From positions 3,583,168 to 3,647,167 of the forward strand of contig NZ_CP009528.1 of NCBI RefSeq assembly GCF_000970025.1: a stretch of DNA of 64,000 bases. Direction: 5' to 3'. Both the position numbers and the translations under genes were made by a program. The notes under the pieces are model-generated. The model had not been told where the DNA came from. It worked only from the letters and a program-made list of their open reading frames with translations, and did no database searches. Each line of letters opens with the position of its first letter. The first letter of the stretch is position 1. Source of the stretch: Methanosarcina barkeri MS (GTDB taxonomy: Archaea > Halobacteriota > Methanosarcinia > Methanosarcinales > Methanosarcinaceae). Positions 7,926 to 19,564 of this stretch are shown piece by piece.

Positions 7926-8030
7926 TAAATACACCTTCTAACTTATATTCTGTTTTATTTCAGTCTTATACTTTCTGCCCGGCAAATAATGTAAAAAATG
8001 AAACCATACCTTACCAGATTTTTTAAGAAA

Positions 8031-8102
8031 CAGGTCTGCTGGGAATCGAACCCAGGTTCGGAGCTCCGGAGGCTCCAGTGATATCCTCTACACTACAGAC
8101 CT
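8031..8102 (-). tRNA. tRNA-Arg (anticodon CCG)
   Basis: The minus strand folds into a 72-nt tRNA: acceptor AGGTCTG pairs with CAGACCT, discriminator G; short D stem GTG/CAC; anticodon stem GGAGC/GCTCC with loop CTCCGGA; variable loop GAAC; T arm CTGGG-TTCGATT-CCCAG. The anticodon CCG (plus-strand 8067-8069) reads CGG, arginine. No intron and no encoded CCA are seen. Confidence 0.93.
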
Positions 8103-8130
8103 TCACTATCAAAAAGTCAAGATCAGTTCG

Positions 8131-8142
8131 CTAATATATAAA
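8131..8142 (-). promoter_or_regulatory. TATA box of the tRNA-Arg gene
   Basis: On the minus strand TTTATATATTAG lies about 30 bp upstream of the tRNA 5' end, the expected spacing for an archaeal promoter. Confidence 0.6.
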
Positions 8143-8278
8143 ACCATAATCAGTTAACTGGCTGGTTATAGTGCTAAATAGCTTATAAACTTAATCCTTA
8201 ATAATATTAAAATATCCTTTTATATTTAATATTTATAAACCATTAAAAGGAAATTTAGCCTGAGAATTTCAGGATAGT

Positions 8279-8821
8279 TTACTCTTCCCACTTCTGGCCG
8301 TACTTTTCATCAAACACTATTTCGGATAGAGCTCTACGTGTTGAAGTCCTTTCTTTTGGGACCGGTTCCCCGATTGCAAGAACTGCCATTAGCTCAAGAT
8401 CGGAAGGGCAGTCCAGAATGGAATTGACTTTCTCTTTTTGGTTCAGGATTTCTCCAAGCCAGACCCCACCAAGGCCAAGATCACAGCAGGTGAGGAGCAT
8501 ATTCTCGATTGCAGCCCCTATTGCCTCGAGATCTTTTGTCCTGTTGTAAGAAGTTTCATTGTCCAGGAAAGTCGCAATAAGCAGAGGAGCCCCTGCCACG
8601 ATACCTGTGTAATGAGTGCATTCCGAGAGTTTCTGGATAGTCTCACGGTTTCGAATAACAATGAAACGCCAGGGCTGGTTATTCAATCCGGAAGGAGCCC
8701 AATGGCCTGCATTAAGGATAGTGTTGATATCTTCCTTGCTAACAGGTTTGTCCGTAAACTCCCGGACGCTCCGTCTGTTAAGGATAGTGTTAATGACTTT
8801 GTTATCTCCTTTTACTGGCAT
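8279..8821 (-). CDS. Nitroreductase family FMN protein
   Basis: FMN-dependent NAD(P)H oxidoreductase of unknown physiological substrate, 180 residues. The N-terminal RRSVREFTDKPV and APSGLNNQPWRF motifs are the FMN-binding signature of the family; GLGGVWLGE and AIGEPVP are also typical. A good GGAGGG lies 6 nt before the ATG at 8821. It lies downstream of ilvC on the same strand with about 75 bp between, so read-through is possible but a functional link to branched-chain synthesis is not evident. Confidence 0.85.
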   Translation of the reverse strand: MPVKGDNKVINTILNRRSVREFTDKPVSKEDINTILNAGHWAPSGLNNQPWRFIVIRNRETIQKLSECTHYTGIVAGAPLLIATFLDNETSYNRTKDLEAIGAAIENMLLTCCDLGLGGVWLGEILNQKEKVNSILDCPSDLELMAVLAIGEPVPKERTSTRRALSEIVFDEKYGQKWEE

Positions 8822-8896
8822 ACTTTCCCTCCGGATTGAATTTTATACTTCCAGATTTATGAATTTTCTGTCTACAGGCTATTAATTACTGTAGAA

Positions 8897-9904
8897 TCAG
8901 TCATCGTCAATCTTCTTGTTGAGCCAGGGGATGTTTGCACGGATCTGCTTTCCGACAACCTCAAGCTGGTGTTCCTTTTCCTGGCGTTCCATGGCTTTGA
9001 GTACTGGGTGGTTGACCATGCCTTCGAGCACGAATTCCTTGGCAAATTCGCCGTTCTGAATTCTTTTAAGGGCTTCACGCATGGCTTCGCGGGACTCATC
9101 ATTAATAATCCTGGGGCCGACTGTCATACCGCCGTATTCTGCAGTGTTTGAAACAGAGTGCCACATTCTCTCAAGCCCACCTTCATAGATAAGGTCAACA
9201 ATGAGCTTGACTTCATGGCAGGTTTCGAAATAAGCCATTTCAGGCTGGTATCCGGCCTCAACAAGTGTTTCAAAAGCGGTCTTGATAAGAGATGAAAGTC
9301 CTCCGCAAAGGTCAACCTGTTCTCCGAAAAGATCGGTTTCGGTTTCCTCACGGAAAGTGGTTTCATAGACACCTGCCCTGGTTGCACCGATTCCCTTGAC
9401 ATATGAGAGAGCAATGTCCCTGGCATGTCCGGTTGCGTCCTGATAGACTGCAATAAGAGCCGGGACTCCGATACCTTCGGTATAGGTTCTTCTGACAATG
9501 TGACCAGGTCCCTTGGGAGCAGCCATGAAAACATCAACGTCTTTTGGGGGGACAATCTGGTTGTAGTGAATATTAAAGCCGTGTGCAAAAGCAAGTGCAT
9601 TACCGGCTTCCAGATTTGGTGCGATTTCAGAATAATAAACCGAGGCCTGATTTTCGTCCGGAAGGAGGACCATGATAACATCTGCAGCTTTTGCAGCTTC
9701 TGCCACAGTCATGACCTTCAGGCCGTCATTCTCGGCTTTTGCCCAGCTTGAACTGCTTTTTCTGAGCCCAACAATAACATTAAGCCCTGACTCATGGAGG
9801 TTGCGGGCGTGAGCGTGACCCTGGCTTCCGTAGCCCATTATTGCGATAGTCTTGTCCTTAAGTGCATCAAAAGTAGTTTCGTTATCATAAATTATTTTTG
9901 CCAT
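8897..9904 (-). CDS. ilvC: Ketol-acid reductoisomerase
   Basis: Second step of valine and isoleucine synthesis: isomerises and reduces acetolactate or acetohydroxybutyrate with NADPH and Mg2+. 335 residues, the class I length. The Rossmann motif [13 protein letters not shown] is followed by LRKSSSSW, whose serines/arginine favour NADPH. The knotted C-terminal domain carries the metal ligands in [13 protein letters not shown] and [18 protein letters not shown]. An AGGAG lies 9 nt before the ATG. It is separated from ilvN by about 290 bp with no gene, so it may have its own promoter. Confidence 0.97.
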
Positions 9905-10198
9905 ATTAGATTCTCCTGATGAATTTTTCAGTTTTTGAGCAAAGCTCCTAATATTTTTTTGGGAAGCATATTATTATTAAGTCCTTATTAAATCCGTTCA
10001 CTTCCCTGTGAATTAAGTTGACCTAAGTCGATTTATGGAAAGTTGCTTTTTTCGGATAGGGCAGCTTTTGAAGTTTTAGCAGAGACCTGAAACTTCAGGC
10101 TTACTCTTATTGAAGCTTCAAGGGGTTTAAAACGCTTTCGACTGCCCCAGTCTGTAAAAATAATTAAGCAGCTACCTTTCTTTACCTGCCCTTATTAT

Positions 10199-10684
10199 TT
10201 AAACCTTCTTTGGGCCGCGAACCAGAGCAATCTTACCTGTCCGGACCATTTCCTTAATCCCGAACTGCCTGAGGAGTTTTTCTATTGCCTGAATTTTGGC
10301 TTCGTCTCCAGTTACTTCGACAGTTATGGATTTAGGAGCTACGTCCACTATCCTTGCCCTGAAAATATTCGCAATCTGGATAATTTCGGTTCTCGCACTC
10401 ACGTCGGCTGAAACTTTAATAAGGGCGAGTTCCCGTTCTACAGAGTCATCTCCTCCGATGTCCGAAACTTTGATCACATCAACGAGCTTATTAAGCTGTT
10501 TTGTAACCTGTTCGAGCACATGGTCATCCCCATCAACTACTATAGTCATTCTGGAAGTTTTGGGATCTTCAGTGACTCCTACAGCCAGGCTCTCAATATT
10601 GTATCCGCGCCTTGAGAAGAGCGAAGCCACCCTTGAGAGAACTCCGGACCTATTTTCCACAAGGACTGCCAGTGTATGTTTCAT
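10199..10684 (-). CDS. ilvN: Acetolactate synthase small (regulatory) subunit
   Basis: Regulatory partner of acetolactate synthase; it activates the catalytic subunit and confers feedback inhibition by valine. 161 residues. The N-terminal ACT domain ([29 protein letters not shown]) is followed by the ALS_ss_C domain ending in [12 protein letters not shown]. The start codon overlaps the ilvB stop by one base (TAATG) and has GGAGG upstream, so the two subunits are translationally coupled. Confidence 0.96.
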
Positions 10685-12450
10685 TACTGTTCCTCCAGGT
10701 CGAGAACTCTATCAGCTTTTGCCTTACGCAAATCGGGCATAGCGCAGGGAGTGTCTGCATGTTCTTCCATATCAATGATTTCATTAATTGCAGCCCCTGC
10801 CGGCACCATTGGATAAACGTTTGCCTCGCATTCAACAATTACGTCGACAATAGCAGGCCTACCTGAATTAACAGCTTCTTCAATTGCAGGCCTTACTTCG
10901 GACGGCCTTTCCGCACGCAGTCCAAGTGCTCCGTAAGCCTCGGCAAGTTTGACGAAGTCAACACTGCCCTTGATAAATGTCTGAGAATACCTTTTGTCAT
11001 AGAACAGTTCCTGCCACTGTCTGACCATACCCAGATAACCATTATTAATGATCACAGAAACAACCGGAATGTCGTTCTGGACTACAGTTGCAAGCTCCTG
11101 AGAGTTCATCTGGAAAGAGCCATCGCCTGCAATGTTAATAACCGTTTTATCCGGCTTGCCAACCTTTGCTCCTATGGCTGCAGGGAAACCGTAGCCCATT
11201 GTGCCAAGACCGCCTGATGTAATGAAAGTGCGGGGGTTTTTATACTTGAAGAACTGAGCGGCCCACATCTGGTGCTGCCCGACCTCAGTAACTATAATTG
11301 CGTCCTTGCAAGCCTCAGAGATTTGCTCGATGACAAACTGAGGCATTATGACATCAGGTGACATCTGTTCATAGGTAAGCGGATATTCCTTTTTCCACTG
11401 TTTTATCTTTTCAATCCATGCTTCGGATTTGCAGCACTTGATATATTTATTCAGGGACTTAAGCACCTGTTTTGCGTCTCCGACGATTGGGATCTGGACA
11501 TTTACATTCTTTGAGATCTCAGCAGGGTCGACATCGATGTGAATAACCCTTGCATTGGGGGCAAAGGACTCGAGCTTTCCGGTAACACGGTCATCGAACC
11601 TCGCGCCCACGGCAATAATAAGATCGGATTCCTGAATAGCATAGTTTGCAGACTTGGTCCCGTGCATTCCAAGCATCCCAACATGCAGAGGGTGTTCAGT
11701 CGGAATTGCACCAATTCCCAGGAGAGTAGTCGTAACCGGAGCATTAATTGTCTCAGCCAGCTCTACAAGCTCAGCGCTGGCATTAGAACTTATCACACCG
11801 CCACCTGCGTATATAATAGGCATGCAGGAATTTGCAATTTCCTCGGCGGCTCGTTTGATCTGCTGAGTGTTGCCTTTGTAAGTTGGCTTATATCCTCTAA
11901 GCTCTACTTTGTCAGGATAGTAAAAGTCGATCTCCGCGTTCTGTACATCCTTTGGAAGGTCAATTAATACCGGGCCAGGCCTTCCGGTAGAAGCGATATG
12001 GAAGGCTTCTTTTACGATTCTCGGGAGTTCGTTTGCATCCTGTACGAGGTAGTTGTGCTTGGTAATGGGCTGGGTAATTCCCTTAATGTCGGCTTCCTGG
12101 AAAGCATCATTACCTATCAGGAAGGTTGGGACCTGCCCTGTTAAGGCTACAATAGGCACTGAGTCCATATATGCGGTAGCAATCCCTGTTACCAGGTTGG
12201 TTGCTCCGGGACCTGAGGTAGAAACACAGACCCCGGTCTTTCCAGTTGCACGGGCGTACCCGTCCGCAGCATGAGCTGCTGCCTGTTCGTGACGCACAAG
12301 TATATGGCGCAGATTCGAATCATAAATTTCGTCATAGAAGGGAATGATCTGCCCTCCTGGATATCCGAAGATGGTGTCAACACCTTCTTTTTCCAGGCAC
12401 TTAATCAAAGCCCTTGCGCCATTAACTTTTTCTGTTGACCCGGTTGTCAT
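10684..12450 (-). CDS. ilvB: Acetolactate synthase large (catalytic) subunit
   Basis: TPP-dependent condensation of two pyruvates, or pyruvate with 2-oxobutyrate. 588 residues. The catalytic Glu is in [19 protein letters not shown]; the FAD-binding middle domain and the C-terminal TPP motif [12 protein letters not shown]...IINN are complete. GGAG precedes the ATG at 12450. Possible TATA elements on the minus strand lie near 12545 (AGATAAATATTT) and 12590 (TGATATATTTAC). Order cimA, ilvB, ilvN, ilvC on one strand supports a pathway cluster. Confidence 0.97.
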
Positions 12451-12735
12451 TATTTAACTCCTATTTATTTCTTAATGGTGATTTAACTGGGTACTCACCT
12501 GAAGATGAGTATATTTCCAGTAAGGGTGTGTTCATTAGAAATATTTATCTTTCACACTCACATTTTCTCGTTATTAATTTTGTAAATATATCATAATCAA
12601 TCATGTATATATGGATACGGTTTTTCCTGATCCAGAAATATTAGTGGTGTGTGATTTCAAGAATTTTTCCAGCAGGAAAAAAAGGAGAGGACAGAACAGC
12701 CCTCCTGAAAAATCTATATAATTCATTTTCTGAAA

Positions 12736-14226
12736 TCACTCGGCCCGGATAAGGCGGTTCATACCGTTCATTACAGCTTCTACGGAAGCCATAATTATGT
12801 CCGTCCTGGCTCCGCTTGCGGTAACTTCCTTTCCATCCTTGGAAAGTTTTACCCTTACTTCAACAAGGGCATCGGTTCCGCCAGTGATCGAGTCTACATG
12901 ATACTCTTCAAGGATAATATCTTCCGCACAGGAACGTACAGCTCTCCGGATTGCGTTGATTACAGCATCTACAGGCCCGTTCCCGATTCCTGCCTGTACA
13001 ATAGCTTTATCTTTTACGTTAAGTTTTATCGATGCCGTTGGAGTCACACGGTTTCCTGACACAATGGTAAACTCTTCCAGTTTTACCAGAGGTTCCTTAT
13101 AAATATCAAGTACGTTTTCTGCAATGGTGTGCAGGTCAGCATCAGTTACGTGTTTTCCCTGGTCACCAATCTGCTTGACACGATTGAAAATTTCTTCGGT
13201 CTGGGCCTCATCAGCTACAAGCCCCATTTCCTTTAAGGCAAGAGTAATCGAGCTGCGTCCTGCATGTTTTCCAAGTACGATCTGACGCTGCCTTCCGATA
13301 TATTCCGGGCTCATCGGTTCATAGGTTGCCTTATCGGCAAGAAGGCCGTGAACATGGATTCCTGCTTCGTGAGTGAATGCGTTTCCACCTACAAGAGCCT
13401 TATTTGGTGATACGGGAATTCCTGTAAGCCGGCTTACAAGCCTTGAAGTCCGGTAGATCATCTCATGTTTGATACCTGTATTATACTTGTAGAGCCATTC
13501 CAGGCTCGTTACTACTTCTTCAAGGGATGCGTTTCCAGCTCTTTCACCTAACCCGTTAACAGTTACATGGGCCTGTTTTGCCCCTGCAGCCAGGGCAGCA
13601 ACCGTGTTCGCAGTTGCAAAACCAAAATCATTGTGGCAGTGAATGCTGAGAGGAGCTTTCAGTGAGGAAGTCAGGTCCCGGAAAATTTTGGTTGTCCTTT
13701 CAGGTACCAGAAGGCCTACAGTATCACAGAAGCATAACCTGTCAGCGCCTGCATCTATGCCGTCGGTAAAGATGGTCTTTAGAAACTCAGGGTCTGCACG
13801 CGAGGCATCTTCCCCGCTCAATTCCACAATCAGGCCGTGGTCCTTGGCATACTCAATTACATCAACTGCGATCTGCCTTACTGCATCCCGACCCTTTTTG
13901 ATTTTCGTCCTTATATGAAGGTCCGAAACAGGTGCTACAAGGTGAATAGAGTCAACATCACATTCCAGAGCACGGTCAACATCGGACTTTACAATCCTGC
14001 AGTAGCTGCAAATTTCAGCGTTAAGCCCTGCATTTGCAACAGCCCTGATGGATTCCCTTTCACCTTTGGAAGTGATTGCAGAACCAGCCTCAATTATTGA
14101 GACCCCCATTTCATCAAGCGCTCGGGCGATTAAAAGCTTCTTGTCCTTTGTAAGGGCAACGCCAGGTGTTTGTTCACCGTCTCTCAAAGTAGTATCCAGA
14201 AAGCGGACATTTTCGAATAATATAAT
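12736..14226 (-). CDS. cimA: (R)-Citramalate synthase (CimA) / 2-isopropylmalate synthase family
   Basis: Condenses acetyl-CoA with pyruvate to citramalate, the threonine-independent route to 2-oxobutyrate and isoleucine in methanogens. The DRE-TIM barrel has [15 protein letters not shown] and [11 protein letters not shown]; the C-terminal LeuA-type allosteric domain ends near 12736. The reading frame is open upstream to a TGA at 14230-14232 and encodes the conserved first strand ([14 protein letters not shown]). No ATG, GTG or TTG lies between that stop and the TTG of 'TTLRDGE' (14187), which would remove the strand. An unusual start (ATT at 14226 or ATA at 14223) after GAGGG is therefore proposed. 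Isopropylmalate or homocitrate synthase activity cannot be excluded; the ilv neighbours favour CimA. Confidence 0.85.
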
Positions 14227-14232
14227 CCCTCA

Positions 14233-14958
14233 GTATTTTTTTTATTGAGATAGTTTCTTCGCAATACAGGAAAATAATATCTATATAATATTTGTTATTT
14301 TATAATATTATATCCTATTTTGCAAGCTCCAATCTATTAATACAAATATTACATATATTTTTCTCAGGAACCCGGATTTTTCAGGAAGATTTCCTAGTTT
14401 ACGCCGTGGTTCTCTGAAACTTTTCCTCAATAGGTAGACCATAGTATTTTTAGTTTCCAGTTGACAAATAGAAGTTACACAATGCAATAACTCTTTGGAT
14501 ACTATTTTTAATTGGAGTACCTTTAGTCTTTTCAAATGCGATTTAAGTAATTTTGTTCGCTCACAGGATCATTCTGTGGTTGACAGCTTACGGCATTGGT
14601 TGAGAAATTCAATGCGAAGTATCTTGGCTTCAAGCAGGAGTTTGGGGAGCAAACTGTTTTTGATGTGGCGAATAAGATTAATGAATGGGTGGAATTGATA
14701 AAAAAGAGTTTTTAAAAAATCTCACTTCTTATTTACAGTTATGGAACTTATTAACCTGTACAGAGATTTTAAGTATGCTCGCATAAAGTGGACGGAAAAG
14801 TTCAGATATTGACCTTCTTAGTGTTAAGCGCAAAATTAAAATTTTTTTAATGTTTATGTAAACTTTTTATATTATAATATATAAGAGTAAGAAAGTAGGA
14901 AACCAGTCTATTCACTTCGTTTTCCAATTATTAGTTTTCTTGATTTTTCCATTTAGGT
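14233..14958. other. Region between cimA and the insertion sequence
   Basis: AT-rich DNA upstream of cimA with TATA-like boxes on the minus strand near 14280-14310, and the small coding remnant at 14584-14715. Nothing else supported. Confidence 0.35.
14584..14715 (+). pseudogene. C-terminal remnant of an unidentified gene
   Basis: A frame with no start codon follows a stop at 14581-14583 and encodes 43 residues: QLTALVEKFNAKYLGF, then KQEFGEQTVFDVANKINEW and VELIKKSF. This reads as real protein, with an amphipathic C-terminal helix, while an overlapping frame (14495-14698) with an ATG-like start looks like noise. It lies about 240 bp from an insertion sequence. The source family is not recognised. 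Confidence 0.4.
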
Positions 14959-16097
14959 TAGGAGTTACGCAGTTGGCTCCTAGCATATTGTTTTTTCCAA
15001 ACTTTCAAATATTTGAATTAATTTAACGTGTATTGGGGATTCCTTAAGTATTCTGTCACTGCCACTCTTCTAATTTTCATAGCACTTTCAAACCAGGATA
15101 TTCCACTTTTGATTCTTTGTAATTCCAGTCTAAGAAAAGCTCTTAATGAGAACATTATATGTGCTCTTTGTGATTCTTCCTTTCTTGCCTGACATTTTTC
15201 GACACCACAGAACTGTTTTATTCCCCTATGATATTCCTCAATTTTCCATGACTTCTTTGCCAAATCTTCACGTTTTGCTTCATCCATCTCTTGCACATCT
15301 GTAACCCAGTGTTGCGTGTCTCCATTTTTTGAAACTATCCTAAACACCTTTACAAATCCATATGCTTTGAGGTGAACCACACGTCCTTTTGGAGGAATAT
15401 CTACTGTTTCAAGTGGCACATTTCCCTTGTTGTCAGGATTTACCAAACGATTATTTTTCAATCTTGTAAGGAAATGCCACTCTTTCTGTCTAATGGCTTT
15501 AAGGTTTTTCACACTTGCATACCATGTATCAAATAAAACGAATTTGGGATTAAAACCACGTTCTTCGGCCTTGTCAAGCATATCACGGAAATGGTCATTC
15601 TTTGTTTTGTCGTCTACATCGATGTTATAAATTCGAAAATCGATAGGTATAACGGTTGTACCGTCAGTCCAAACTAAGGTAACCAGGCCTATTCCCTTTA
15701 CAGTACGATGATGTTTTCCACTCCACATACGACGAACAAAAGCAATTTCTTCTGCGTATGGTTTATCTAATGTTGAATCATCAACAATTAGGTATCCTCC
15801 CTTAAGCTTGACATAACTTTTTACTTCCTCCCATAGTGCTTCCGTGTCTGGAGGTTGCCTTTGAAGGCAACGAGTAAAAGCATCATGAGAAGGAGCATTA
15901 GCTATGTCTGGATAACATCTAGCAGCTTCAGTACAGCTAAAAACGTTAGAAGCCGCAATGAGAAAATTAATGTAGTCAATGTCGGTACACTTAGGTGGAT
16001 TTATGTCCATAACTCCGTACGTTTTTAGAGAAACACTAAGCCATAAGTATATTTATAAAGATATCAAGTTTTCGGCATTTTAACTGCGTAAGTCCTA
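14959..16097 (-). mobile_element. Insertion sequence, 1139 bp, copy 1
   Basis: Bounded by imperfect terminal inverted repeats TAGGAGTTACGCAGTT (left) and, in reverse complement, TAGGACTTACGCAGTT (right). The flanks show a 5-bp target duplication TAGGT (14954-14958 and 16098-16102). It carries one transposase gene on the minus strand. A second copy of exactly the same length lies at 39060-40198 in the same orientation. Confidence 0.95.
15018..16010 (-). CDS. DDE transposase (IS4/IS701-like), copy 1
   Basis: Cuts and joins the IS ends. 330 residues filling nearly the whole element. Candidate catalytic acidic residues: Asp in LIVDDSTLDKPYAEE, Asp in KFVLFDTWYASVKNL and Glu in KIEEYHRGIKQF, in the order and context of RNase-H-fold transposases with the Y-H-R-x-x-K signature. 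The gene is intact, without stops or frameshifts. The exact IS family needs a database comparison; IS701-like and IS4-like assignments are both plausible. Confidence 0.9.
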   Translation of the reverse strand: MDINPPKCTDIDYINFLIAASNVFSCTEAARCYPDIANAPSHDAFTRCLQRQPPDTEALWEEVKSYVKLKGGYLIVDDSTLDKPYAEEIAFVRRMWSGKHHRTVKGIGLVTLVWTDGTTVIPIDFRIYNIDVDDKTKNDHFRDMLDKAEERGFNPKFVLFDTWYASVKNLKAIRQKEWHFLTRLKNNRLVNPDNKGNVPLETVDIPPKGRVVHLKAYGFVKVFRIVSKNGDTQHWVTDVQEMDEAKREDLAKKSWKIEEYHRGIKQFCGVEKCQARKEESQRAHIMFSLRAFLRLELQRIKSGISWFESAMKIRRVAVTEYLRNPQYTLN

Positions 16098-16434
16098 TAG
16101 GTGAAACCTTTGACTTTTACACAGTTTCATAATTACTAAGGAATACTAGGTTTGAACTGAATAAAGAAGATGAATTACCAAAATTTCCAAAAAGGCTTCT
16201 TCTTTTCTCCAAGTGCTTCAATGATCTTTTGATTAATCAAGCTCTGAACCTGCACATCTGATTATTCCTTATTTGAGATATATAAATGGACTAAAAATAA
16301 TAGTAAATGACAAATAAAAATAGAAAAAAATCATTATTTATTTAAAAGATTTTCTTATAGAGATTAATATTATGTAATGTCACATTTTTAATTTTTTATT
16401 TGAAGGTTCAAATATTAATTTACAGAGGTTTAAG
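16098..16434. other. AT-rich upstream region of the YVTN protein gene
   Basis: No gene seen. TATA-like sequences near 16345-16375 (TATTATGTAATG) could serve the following gene. Confidence 0.3.
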
Positions 16435-17571
16435 ATGAAAGAGATGAAACGTGCTGAAACACGATGTGGTTATATCTTTATTTTAGAAATAATGGTGCTG
16501 GCGTTTTTAATGCTGGTCAGTATTGCAGGTGCCACACCTTTTGCATATATTACAAACTACGGAAACGACGATGTCTCTGAAATTGACACCGTCTCTGTAA
16601 TTGACACTGCAACAAACACTTTTATAACCACTATAGATGTAGGAAGAGGGCCTACCGGTGTTGCAATTACCCCTGATGGATCAAAAGTGTATGTATTGAA
16701 CAGCTTTGACAGCACTGTCTCTGTAATTGACACAACTACAAATAAGGTTATAGCCACTGTGGATGTAGAAAATGGACCTATTGGAGTTGCAGTCAGTCCA
16801 GATGGAACAAAGGTATATGTGACGCAATGCAGAGACGAAGATGGAAATACCGCTATCTCTATAATTGATACAGCAAAAAACAAGGTTACAGACACGATAA
16901 ACATAGGACATTATGACTCTCTTGGTGATATTGCTGTTACGCCTGATGGAAAAAGGGTATATGTTTTAGCTGAAGGAGGACCTACTTCTGTAATTGACAC
17001 AGCAACAAATACTATTATAGCCACCGTAAATGTAGGAAGCTATCCAGGTGGAATTGTGATCACCCCCGATGGAAAAAAGGCATATGTGGCAAATGGTTAC
17101 AACAATGTTTCTGTAATTGACACAGCAACAAACATTGTTGTAGCCACAGTGAGCGATCGTATAGGCTCTGTTTCTGGAATTGCTGTCGCTCCAAATGGAT
17201 CAAAGGTATATGTGGCAAATTACGGCTACGGGGCAAATAATATCTATGATGGGGGTGGAAACATTTCTGTAATTGATACATTAACAAATAAAGTTACAGT
17301 CATGGTACCTTTAGGAAAGTATACTTATGGAGTGGCAATTACCCCTGATGGAACAAAGCTTTACGTGGCAAATGATTATAGCAATGTTTCTGTAATTGAT
17401 ACATCAACAAATAAAGTTACATCGACTGTAAATATAGGAACCAGACATCTAGGAATTGCTATTGGAAATAAAAAAGTACAAAATGTTTCTCATACAACTC
17501 CCTCTGAATTCAATTCTTTGCTTGTTGTAATACTTATATTGTACATCTGGAGAAAGTCAACTAAAATCTAA
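16435..17571 (+). CDS. Secreted YVTN-type seven-bladed beta-propeller surface protein
   Basis: Probable cell-surface (S-layer-associated) protein. 378 residues. A signal peptide spans about residues 12-33 (FILEIMVLAFLMLVSIAG). Seven repeats each carry a version of SVIDTxTN and xxITPDGxKVYVAN, giving one seven-bladed YVTN propeller. The C-terminus (EFNSLLVVILILYIWRKSTK) is a membrane anchor with a basic tail; Methanosarcina surface proteins often end in a PEF-CTERM anchor processed by archaeosortase, and this tail is similar in layout but lacks a clear PEF motif. Ligand unknown. Confidence 0.85.
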   Translation: MKEMKRAETRCGYIFILEIMVLAFLMLVSIAGATPFAYITNYGNDDVSEIDTVSVIDTATNTFITTIDVGRGPTGVAITPDGSKVYVLNSFDSTVSVIDTTTNKVIATVDVENGPIGVAVSPDGTKVYVTQCRDEDGNTAISIIDTAKNKVTDTINIGHYDSLGDIAVTPDGKRVYVLAEGGPTSVIDTATNTIIATVNVGSYPGGIVITPDGKKAYVANGYNNVSVIDTATNIVVATVSDRIGSVSGIAVAPNGSKVYVANYGYGANNIYDGGGNISVIDTLTNKVTVMVPLGKYTYGVAITPDGTKLYVANDYSNVSVIDTSTNKVTSTVNIGTRHLGIAIGNKKVQNVSHTTPSEFNSLLVVILILYIWRKSTKI

Positions 17572-18362
17572 AAACTTAAAATTTCAAAATTCAAAACTCT
17601 AAATACGCTAATAGTAGCTACGATCTGACGTTCTCCAGACATCTTCAAAAAATAACATTTTTCATGTTATCGTTTGGAGAATTATTTGAAAATTTGCAGT
17701 TACGATCTCAACTGAAGATTGGGAAAATAGCTTCTGGAAGTTCTCAATGAAGACAAAGGGCCAAAAAGTTTGGAAATTTTCAAAAATACATGTTTGAGTA
17801 GCTAGGGCAGTTTTCAGAAAAAACGACCGCAGAAAAAAATATCGGTCAAATATTCTGGATTTCGGTATCATATGGAATAACTAAGTTCAGGGAAGCATAC
17901 CCTATGAGTTAAAAACTTATAATAGAAAATTTGAAATGTTTTGGGTGAAAATAGTAAGTCAATTCTTTTAATCATGTTCTCTGGAAAGACATTACTAGGT
18001 GCAGGTGGCTATTACCTGTAACTCCGAAAACTGCCTATTAGAGGCGATAATAGTACAGAAAAAGAAAATATGCCAGAATTAAAAAGCTTAAATCCAAGAA
18101 AAAGTATTAAGTTTTAATGAGCAAATAAGGGGTTTTGTCTTTGATATTCTTTGAGCCTATCCCGAAACTCAAAATTTGATTTTTGAATCTCATATTTGGA
18201 ACAATCAATTGGATACCTAATTACTAAAATGATCCTGAAAACTCATGACGATTTAGAATAAAATAGGTTTTGGGATAGGCTCTATTAATAACGATTCTAT
18301 GCCTAAATAAATGTTATACTCCAGGGATTTGTCAATGTTGATATTAGATATGGAATAAGTTT
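17572..18362. other. Intergenic region with a dispersed repeat and a miniature element
   Basis: No gene supported. It contains the second copy of the old repeat shared with 4220-4440 (about 17845-18030) and the 130-bp element at 18153-18282. A 69-codon frame on the minus strand near 17662-17871 is unconvincing. Confidence 0.4.
18153..18282 (-). mobile_element. 130-bp miniature inverted-repeat element, copy A
   Basis: Ends GAGCCTATCCC and GGGATAGGCTC are perfect 11-bp inverted repeats. In reverse complement the whole element aligns with copy B (19224-19353), which has the same length, at roughly three quarters identity by eye. It has no coding capacity, as expected for a MITE moved by a transposase elsewhere. 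Confidence 0.75.
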
Positions 18363-19124
18363 TCATTCAAATTCTTTTCTGAGCTCATTTGTATCGTATA
18401 TGTAATTAATAGAACCTTTATTCGTATCTAAGCCATTAAGAGAGATTCCTATAAAATACCCAAAATTTTTTGTTATAATAAATCTATCATGTATTTTCCC
18501 ATTTTGTTTATTGTCTTTAATTAAAGTTAATTTACGATTTGAAGGAATGTTTAAATTTTTATTATTTTCGTACTTGATTTTTATATCCAAATTAAGTGGC
18601 AATTTCTCAATCAAAGCACTATAATACCTATAATCGAAATAAGGATCTTGAATATAGACAAAATCTTGCGCATTCTGTATTATGTGTCCAAAAATCTCAG
18701 AAATTTTAGACATTAATTCAGGTTGTGAAAAATACACTTTGCTAGTTTTATCAATCAAAGTCTTCTTAGTTTCTTTAAACTCTTCTTCTTCAATTCTAAC
18801 CTCAGATCTGATAATCCCTTGGGATGTCTTAACATCAATTTTTAGGTCAAGCGCCCCCAGAAATGTATTAGATTCTTCAAACACTACATTATTTTCACAG
18901 TCAATAATTTCACACTCATAATAGCCAAAATTTCCCACATTAAATGTATATTTATCATCAAAAATTTCAATCACTTTTTTGAACAAATACTCATATTCAG
19001 CGCAATTTTCTTTAAGTCTTATTATTAACTTGTGGCCGTTATTAATATATTCTTCCGGTATGTTTTTAATAACAACATCTTTCTCTCTACGATACACAAT
19101 GTATTTTTCTTCGTCTTCTCTCAT
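18363..19124 (-). CDS. Phospholipase-D-like protein of unknown role
   Basis: 253 residues, AT-rich and unlike the neighbouring genes in codon use. The N-terminal half (about 1-125) is not recognised. The C-terminal half has QDPYFDYRYYSALIEKLP, then KIHDRFIITKNFGYFIGISL, which looks like the H-x-D and G/S core of PLD-like (HKD) nucleases, with the usual K of HxK replaced by D-R-F. Only one such motif is seen, so it may act as a dimer or be non-catalytic. The ATG has no ribosome site and a TATA-like stretch lies close by, suggesting a leaderless mRNA. It stands alone between two inverted copies of a 130-bp element. A defence or mobile-element function is inference. Confidence 0.6.
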   Translation of the reverse strand: MREDEEKYIVYRREKDVVIKNIPEEYINNGHKLIIRLKENCAEYEYLFKKVIEIFDDKYTFNVGNFGYYECEIIDCENNVVFEESNTFLGALDLKIDVKTSQGIIRSEVRIEEEEFKETKKTLIDKTSKVYFSQPELMSKISEIFGHIIQNAQDFVYIQDPYFDYRYYSALIEKLPLNLDIKIKYENNKNLNIPSNRKLTLIKDNKQNGKIHDRFIITKNFGYFIGISLNGLDTNKGSINYIYDTNELRKEFE

Positions 19125-19564
19125 ATATAAAAATAAATTTTCAACATTTAACTATTTTTTTATTTTTTTGACACTGCTTATAAAGAAACTAATTTCTTTA
19201 TGATTGATTTAAAAGTATTTATAGAGCCTATCCCAAAAGCCATTTAGTCCTTAATCATCAAGAATTTTCAGGATTGTTTTCATGATCAGAAACTTGATTG
19301 ATTATTCGAAATACAGGATTCAGAGAAGCAATTTTGAGTTTTGGGATCAGCTCATGTAGTGGGATACTGAGAAACGTTTACTTAAAGACTCAATTTCGAT
19401 ATGTGCCCGGACTTGAGGATTACCCTGACTTAGGATACATGTGAATAAAAGAGAAAAAAGTAAAAGAAAAGAGAAAAACTGCAAGAGTTTTTCCCGCAAC
19501 ACACAAAGCAAAGTGTATGCGACTCTTGCGTAAAATTACCTATTGCAGTTACTTCAAAATGGCT
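19125..19564. other. Intergenic region with miniature element copy B
   Basis: Apart from the element at 19224-19353, GCAAGAGTTTTT...GACTCTTGC near 19481-19530 forms a weak inverted repeat that may end the M42 peptidase transcript (minus strand). No gene seen. Confidence 0.35.
19224..19353 (+). mobile_element. 130-bp miniature inverted-repeat element, copy B
   Basis: Left end GAGCCTATCCC; the right end is degraded to GGGATCAGCTC. It aligns along its length with the reverse complement of copy A. With copy A it brackets the PLD-like gene. Confidence 0.75.

What the first reader, a model, noticed from the sequence alone, without database searches (positions are those of the whole stretch)
18153..19353. 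PLD-like gene bracketed by inverted 130-bp miniature elements
Two 130-bp elements with 11-bp terminal repeats lie in opposite orientation on either side of a single AT-rich gene with a PLD-like HxD core, forming a 1.2-kb unit. This looks like a compound cargo element: a non-autonomous unit able to move a gene of possible defence or nuclease function. I do not know a described system of this form.
Basis: inference. Interest (0 to 1): 0.65.

Follow-up and report, generated by a model that had tools for sequence, protein, structure and literature searches.

The report
PLD-domain gene between two MITEs
A rare archaeal gene with a phospholipase-D-type (nuclease-like, possibly defensive) domain sits in a variable spot of a Methanosarcina chromosome and happens to lie between two common, independently inserted miniature transposons; the bracketing looks coincidental, so no new mobile element is shown.

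Summary
Two 130-bp miniature elements (18153-18282 and 19224-19353, inverted) flank one AT-rich gene (18363-19124, minus strand). The compound-element interpretation is not supported. The two elements belong to two subfamilies only about 74% identical, one older and one recent, each scattered as solo copies through the genome. The unit has no outer target duplication (TTT/ATG, where the family makes 3-bp duplications). Pairs this close are expected by chance. The same genome has other genes bracketed by two such MITEs: one is the housekeeping gene ftr, and around another each MITE has its own perfect duplication. The only close homologue (62% aa, another Methanosarcina) lies at another locus, with a single degenerate MITE in the opposite orientation. 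The real insertion unit is larger: relatives G088, G077 and G095 lack the whole ~5 kb at 14468-19448. That site is a hotspot, holding a complete type I restriction-modification system in relative G104. The gene itself is real (dN/dS about 0.3). Its C-terminal half is a PLD-superfamily domain with DPY, HDRF and GxSLN motifs, shared with VPA1262/PDC-S05 and STAND-like proteins, which fits a nuclease-type defence effector. That function is inferred, not shown.

The parts
18153..18282 (+). MITE, subfamily A (older; about 90-92% identical to its nearest solo copies); flanks TTT / TAT
19224..19353 (-). MITE, subfamily B (young; 95-100% identical to about 20 solo copies); flanks on + strand ATA / ATG
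18363..19124 (-). 253-aa gene: N-terminal part of unknown fold plus C-terminal PLD-superfamily domain (DPY, HDRF, GxSLN motifs)
18366..18770 (-). C-terminal PLD-like domain (135 aa), modelled and matched to NucT, SauUSI, TrmBL2, Zucchini and BfiI
14468..19448 (.). strain-variable block absent from relatives (empty sites in G088, G077, G095; other cargo in G078 and G104)
14958..16098 (-). about 1.14-kb IS with DDE_Tnp_1 transposase (15018-16010), near-identical copies throughout the genome; unrelated to the MITEs
16435..17571 (+). YncE-like beta-propeller protein inside the variable block

Best explanation
An accessory gene encoding a PLD-superfamily (HDR-type) protein arrived as part of a strain-variable block (about 14468-19448) in an intergenic hotspot of a Methanosarcina chromosome. 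Two MITEs of two subfamilies, mobilised in trans by IS4/5-type (DUF4096) transposases recognising the same 15-bp ends, inserted separately on either side of it, as they do in many AT-rich intergenic gaps. The MITE pair does not move the gene. The protein most likely acts as a nuclease-type effector, probably defensive, using a PLD domain whose single catalytic motif would need dimerisation. Shown: MITE identities, the empty sites of the large block, purifying selection, PLD fold and motifs. Inferred: separate insertion of these two copies (from age, subfamily and controls, since their own duplications are each 1 base off), nuclease activity, and the defence role.
For: Two MITE subfamilies about 74% identical: the left copy is about 92% identical to subfamily A copies, and the right copy is 100% identical to one solo copy and 95% or more to about 20 others. 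Solo B copies have perfect 3-bp target duplications in 16 of 18 cases (my count). The outer flanks of the proposed unit, TTT and ATG, do not match; the per-element pairs TTT/TAT and ATA/ATG match 2 of 3 bases. 86 MITE-like sites in the chromosome predict about 1.8 pairs within 1.3 kb by chance, and 1 is observed. The same genome has MITE-bracketed APH-family, acyltransferase and ftr genes, with each MITE having its own perfect duplication in the APH case (ATT/ATT, ATA/ATA) and in the acyltransferase case (GAT/GAT, ATG/ATG). The homologue in G076 is at another locus with one degenerate MITE in the opposite orientation and none downstream. In relatives, window 14467 and 19446 are joined with about 80-150 bp between. 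A DUF4096 transposase element has the same 15-bp ends. dN/dS is about 0.3. PLD fold and motifs. PDC-S05 and VPA1262 partial matches. A type I RM system at the same site in G104.
Against: Neither MITE here has a perfect duplication of its own, so separate insertion is not proved directly. A MITE also lies about 75 bp upstream of the homologue in G076, a coincidence I put at a few percent. No genome was found that has the immediate flanks (16100-18152 joined to 19354) without the gene, so the 1.2-kb empty site could not be tested. Defence function rests on weak, partial family matches (NCBIfam 30.6 bits against a cut-off of 80), and the G104 RM system is only co-located in a relative.
Confidence: 0.85

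Rival explanations
1. Compound MITE transposon: the two inverted MITEs and the gene moved together as one 1.2-kb non-autonomous unit by a trans-acting IS4/5-type transposase.
For: Two related MITEs in inverted orientation around a single horizontally acquired, AT-rich gene. An IS with matching ends exists in the genome. MITE-flanked units are known in Acinetobacter (PMC3934969, PMC10969869).
Against: MITEs only 74% identical and of different age; no outer 3-bp duplication (TTT/ATG); no second copy of the unit in this genome or in 31 genus genomes; the homologue lies elsewhere without the pair; chance rate and similar brackets around other genes.
Confidence: 0.05
2. The 5-kb block 14468-19448 entered as one mobile island (integrative element, or transformation and recombination between conserved flanks), and the MITEs came with it or afterwards.
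For: Clean absence of the whole block in G088, G077 and G095; different cargo at the same site in G078 and G104.
Against: No integrase, att repeats or tRNA at the ends was found; the block contains an IS, dispersed repeats and MITEs, so stepwise accretion is equally possible.
Confidence: 0.35
3. The gene is a non-enzymatic PLD-fold protein (like TrmBL2/TrmB or FAM83), a ligand- or DNA-binding regulator rather than a nuclease.
For: TrmBL2, TrmB and FAM83 score as well as nucleases in the structural comparison. The motif is HxR, with K in place of the Asp of HxKx4D.
Against: The His of the motif, and the G and N of GxSLN, are invariant across nine divergent proteins in archaea and bacteria, many in effector-like C-terminal positions.
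Confidence: 0.25

Closest known systems
MITE-flanked class 1 integron units in Acinetobacter (PMC3934969, PMC10969869)
   Same: Accessory genes lie between two miniature non-autonomous elements.
   Different: There the MITEs are identical, in the same direction, and the whole unit has 5-bp outer direct repeats; here they are 74% identical, inverted, with no outer duplication.
IS4/5-type (DUF4096, PF13340) insertion sequences and their MITEs
   Same: 15-bp terminal inverted repeat GAGCCTATCCCAAAA shared with a DUF4096 element in this genome; 3-bp duplications at solo copies.
   Different: Only the ends are shared; the 130-bp interior is MITE-specific.
VPA1262 family / PADLOC PDC-S05
   Same: The C-terminal domain shares DPY, HDRF and GxSLN motifs; partial profile matches.
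   Different: The window protein lacks the VPA1262 N-terminal part, scores far below the NCBIfam cut-off, and is a single 253-aa protein rather than part of a three-gene set.
PLD-family nucleases (NucT, Nuc, SauUSI and BfiI PLD domains)
   Same: Same fold by Foldseek and VIA (NucT Z 9.4, SauUSI Z 9.0, BfiI Z 7.6), with one motif per chain here.
   Different: HxR in place of HxK and K in place of the following Asp; about 8-14% identity; model confidence only moderate (pLDDT 59).

Membership tests
MITE-flanked composite transposon-like unit | the two flanking MITEs are (nearly) identical | tested here: not met
   about 74% identity, two subfamilies
MITE-flanked composite transposon-like unit | target duplication of the family's length at the outer ends of the unit | tested here: not met
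   outer flanks TTT / ATG; family duplication is 3 bp
MITE-flanked composite transposon-like unit | the same unit found at another site, or an exact empty site | tested here: not met
   no second unit in own genome or genus; homologue in G076 without the pair. The exact empty site of the 1.2-kb unit could not be tested because its flanks are strain-specific
IS4/5-derived MITE | under 500 bp, non-coding, multicopy, terminal inverted repeats shared with an autonomous IS | tested here: met
   130 bp, 41 matches in the genome, ends shared with a DUF4096 element
IS4/5-derived MITE | 3-bp target duplications | tested here: inconclusive
   met for 16 of 18 other B copies; the two copies here match at 2 of 3 bases
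PLD superfamily | PLD fold | tested here: met
   Foldseek and VIA top matches are PLD proteins; model pLDDT 59
PLD superfamily, catalytic members | HxKx4D(x6)GSxxN motif | tested here: not met
   HDRFIITK...GISLN: H, G and N kept, K replaced by R and D by K
VPA1262 family (NF040700) | score above curated cut-off of 80 bits | tested here: not met
   30.6 bits, C-terminal stretch only
DISARM (DrmC PLD protein) | match to DrmC profiles | tested here: not met
   PADLOC scan gave only PDC-S05; DrmA and DrmB neighbours were not searched for separately

The most novel reading that the evidence does not exclude
The two MITEs can still be used together by the trans-acting transposase, so that the 1.2-kb segment is a mobilisable cassette for a compact single-gene PLD defence effector, with decayed outer duplications.
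Probability: 0.05. Interest if true: 0.5.

Novelty: new member of a known kind. Interest (0 to 1): 0.2.

Why it matters
The result mainly removes a false lead: in MITE-rich Methanosarcina genomes, two MITEs around one gene is a chance arrangement and should not be read as a compound transposon without outer target duplications. What remains of use is a compact archaeal protein with a VPA1262/STAND-type PLD effector domain, and a variable intergenic site that holds a restriction-modification system in a sister species.

Tried and rejected
Compound transposon: rejected on duplication, identity, age and control tests. Full-length structure model: pLDDT 40, not used; replaced by the C-terminal domain alone. 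Homologue searches with the full protein in phages, viral contigs and genome contigs found nothing beyond the G076 record, and a phylum-wide search found only a distant domain match in G376. In plasmids only one weak domain match was found. Domain searches in viral contigs found nothing. Pfam found no family in the window protein. Rfam found nothing significant in the block. Looking for the 1.2-kb empty site through the left flank failed, because 16100-18152 is intact only here (other matches are propeller paralogues and a dispersed repeat).

Full report
Observation. The two 130-bp elements, their inverted orientation and the single AT-rich ORF between them are all in the sequence. The elements are real members of a dispersed family: 41 matches to the left copy in this genome, and matches to the right copy in all 31 genomes of the genus searched. 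The genome is a Methanosarcina: a genome of the same genus as the window's (G076) is the record titled 'Methanosarcina sp. ERenArc_MAG2'. From memory, a chromosome of 4,533,209 bp corresponds to M. barkeri MS; this is a lead, not a test.

What the elements are. They are MITEs. The 15-bp end GAGCCTATCCCAAAA also bounds an element with a DUF4096 (PF13340, IS4/5-type) transposase at G000:C2:2328180-2328994. Solo copies carry 3-bp target duplications: by my count, 16 of 18 other B copies are perfect. As RNA the left copy folds into one long hairpin (z = -6.2); the right copy does so less strongly (z = -2.6).

Do the two MITEs form one unit? The evidence says no. They are only 74% identical and belong to separate subfamilies. 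The left one differs by about 8% or more from its nearest relatives, while the right one is 100% identical to another solo copy, so they probably inserted at different times. The outer flanks of the proposed unit are TTT and ATG, not a duplication. The individual pairs are TTT/TAT and ATA/ATG, each one base off, so the duplication test does not by itself prove separate insertion. With 86 MITE-like sites in the chromosome about 1.8 pairs within 1.3 kb are expected by chance, and this is the only one observed. Control regions in the same genome show two MITEs 1-2 kb apart around other genes: an APH-family gene where each MITE has its own perfect duplication (ATT/ATT and ATA/ATA), an acyltransferase gene (GAT/GAT and ATG/ATG), and the methanogenesis enzyme gene ftr.

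The gene elsewhere. In the family (112 genomes) one clear homologue was found: G076, 62% amino-acid identity (same contig). It lies at another locus, beside ORFs resembling STAND/TPR proteins. One degenerate MITE lies about 75 bp upstream in the opposite orientation relative to the gene, and none lies downstream. A MITE upstream of both copies is a mild coincidence that I could not explain further.

The true insertion. Comparing synteny, window 8001-14467 and 19446 onward are conserved in relatives. In G088, G077 and G095 they are joined with about 80-150 bp between. The whole block 14468-19448, with an IS (14958-16098, about 38 near-identical copies), a YncE-like propeller, a dispersed 220-bp repeat and the PLD gene with MITEs, is therefore variable. 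G078 has two membrane proteins there and G104 a complete type I restriction-modification system. The site is an accessory-gene hotspot.

The protein. dN/dS against G076 is about 0.3, so the gene is under purifying selection. Pfam finds nothing. PADLOC gives PDC-S05 (E 0.0014) and NCBIfam gives VPA1262_N (1.4e-7, 30.6 bits, below its cut-off of 80), both on the C-terminal half. An alignment of nine divergent proteins (window, G076, G376, Halobacterium pNRC100, Halorarius, Klebsiella, Burkholderia, Carnobacterium, Cytobacillus) shows invariant DPY, HDR and GxSxN motifs. The C-terminal domain model (pLDDT 59, pTM 0.53) matches NucT best (Foldseek E 8e-4; VIA Z 9.4, rmsd 3.4, 123 aligned), followed by TrmBL2, SauUSI, Zucchini and FAM83, with BfiI lower. 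The fold is therefore PLD-superfamily. Because TrmBL2 and FAM83 score as well, fold alone does not prove nuclease activity. The motif is HxR with K in place of the Asp. A role as a defence effector is plausible from the relatives and the hotspot, but inferred.

Literature. This locus does not meet its defining features.

Verdict. Observation confirmed; compound mobile element not supported; the gene is an ordinary but uncharacterised PLD-domain accessory gene in a variable island.

Noticed in passing
window 17623-17842: About 220-bp dispersed repeat, roughly 80% identical copies across the genus; no significant Rfam match in the block and no unusual RNA fold for its first 150 nt. Could be another MITE-like family.
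   Followed up: partly
window 14468-19448: Hotspot between a leuA-like gene and an M42 peptidase gene: empty in G088, G077 and G095, two membrane proteins in G078, complete type I restriction-modification system in G104.
   Followed up: partly
window 14958-16098: IS of about 1.14 kb with about 38 near-identical copies in this genome, including the plasmid contig; a very recent burst.
   Followed up: no
L122 (G000:C2:4523800-4526000): The methanogenesis gene ftr lies between two MITEs of the same family; useful as a control for bracketing by chance.
   Followed up: yes
L090 1554-4657: The G076 homologue lies next to TPR and P-loop ORFs resembling broken STAND defence genes.
   Followed up: partly
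window 19213-19223: The inner end of the right MITE abuts a TATAAATA sequence about 95 bp upstream of the PLD gene start, so the MITE may affect its promoter.
   Followed up: no
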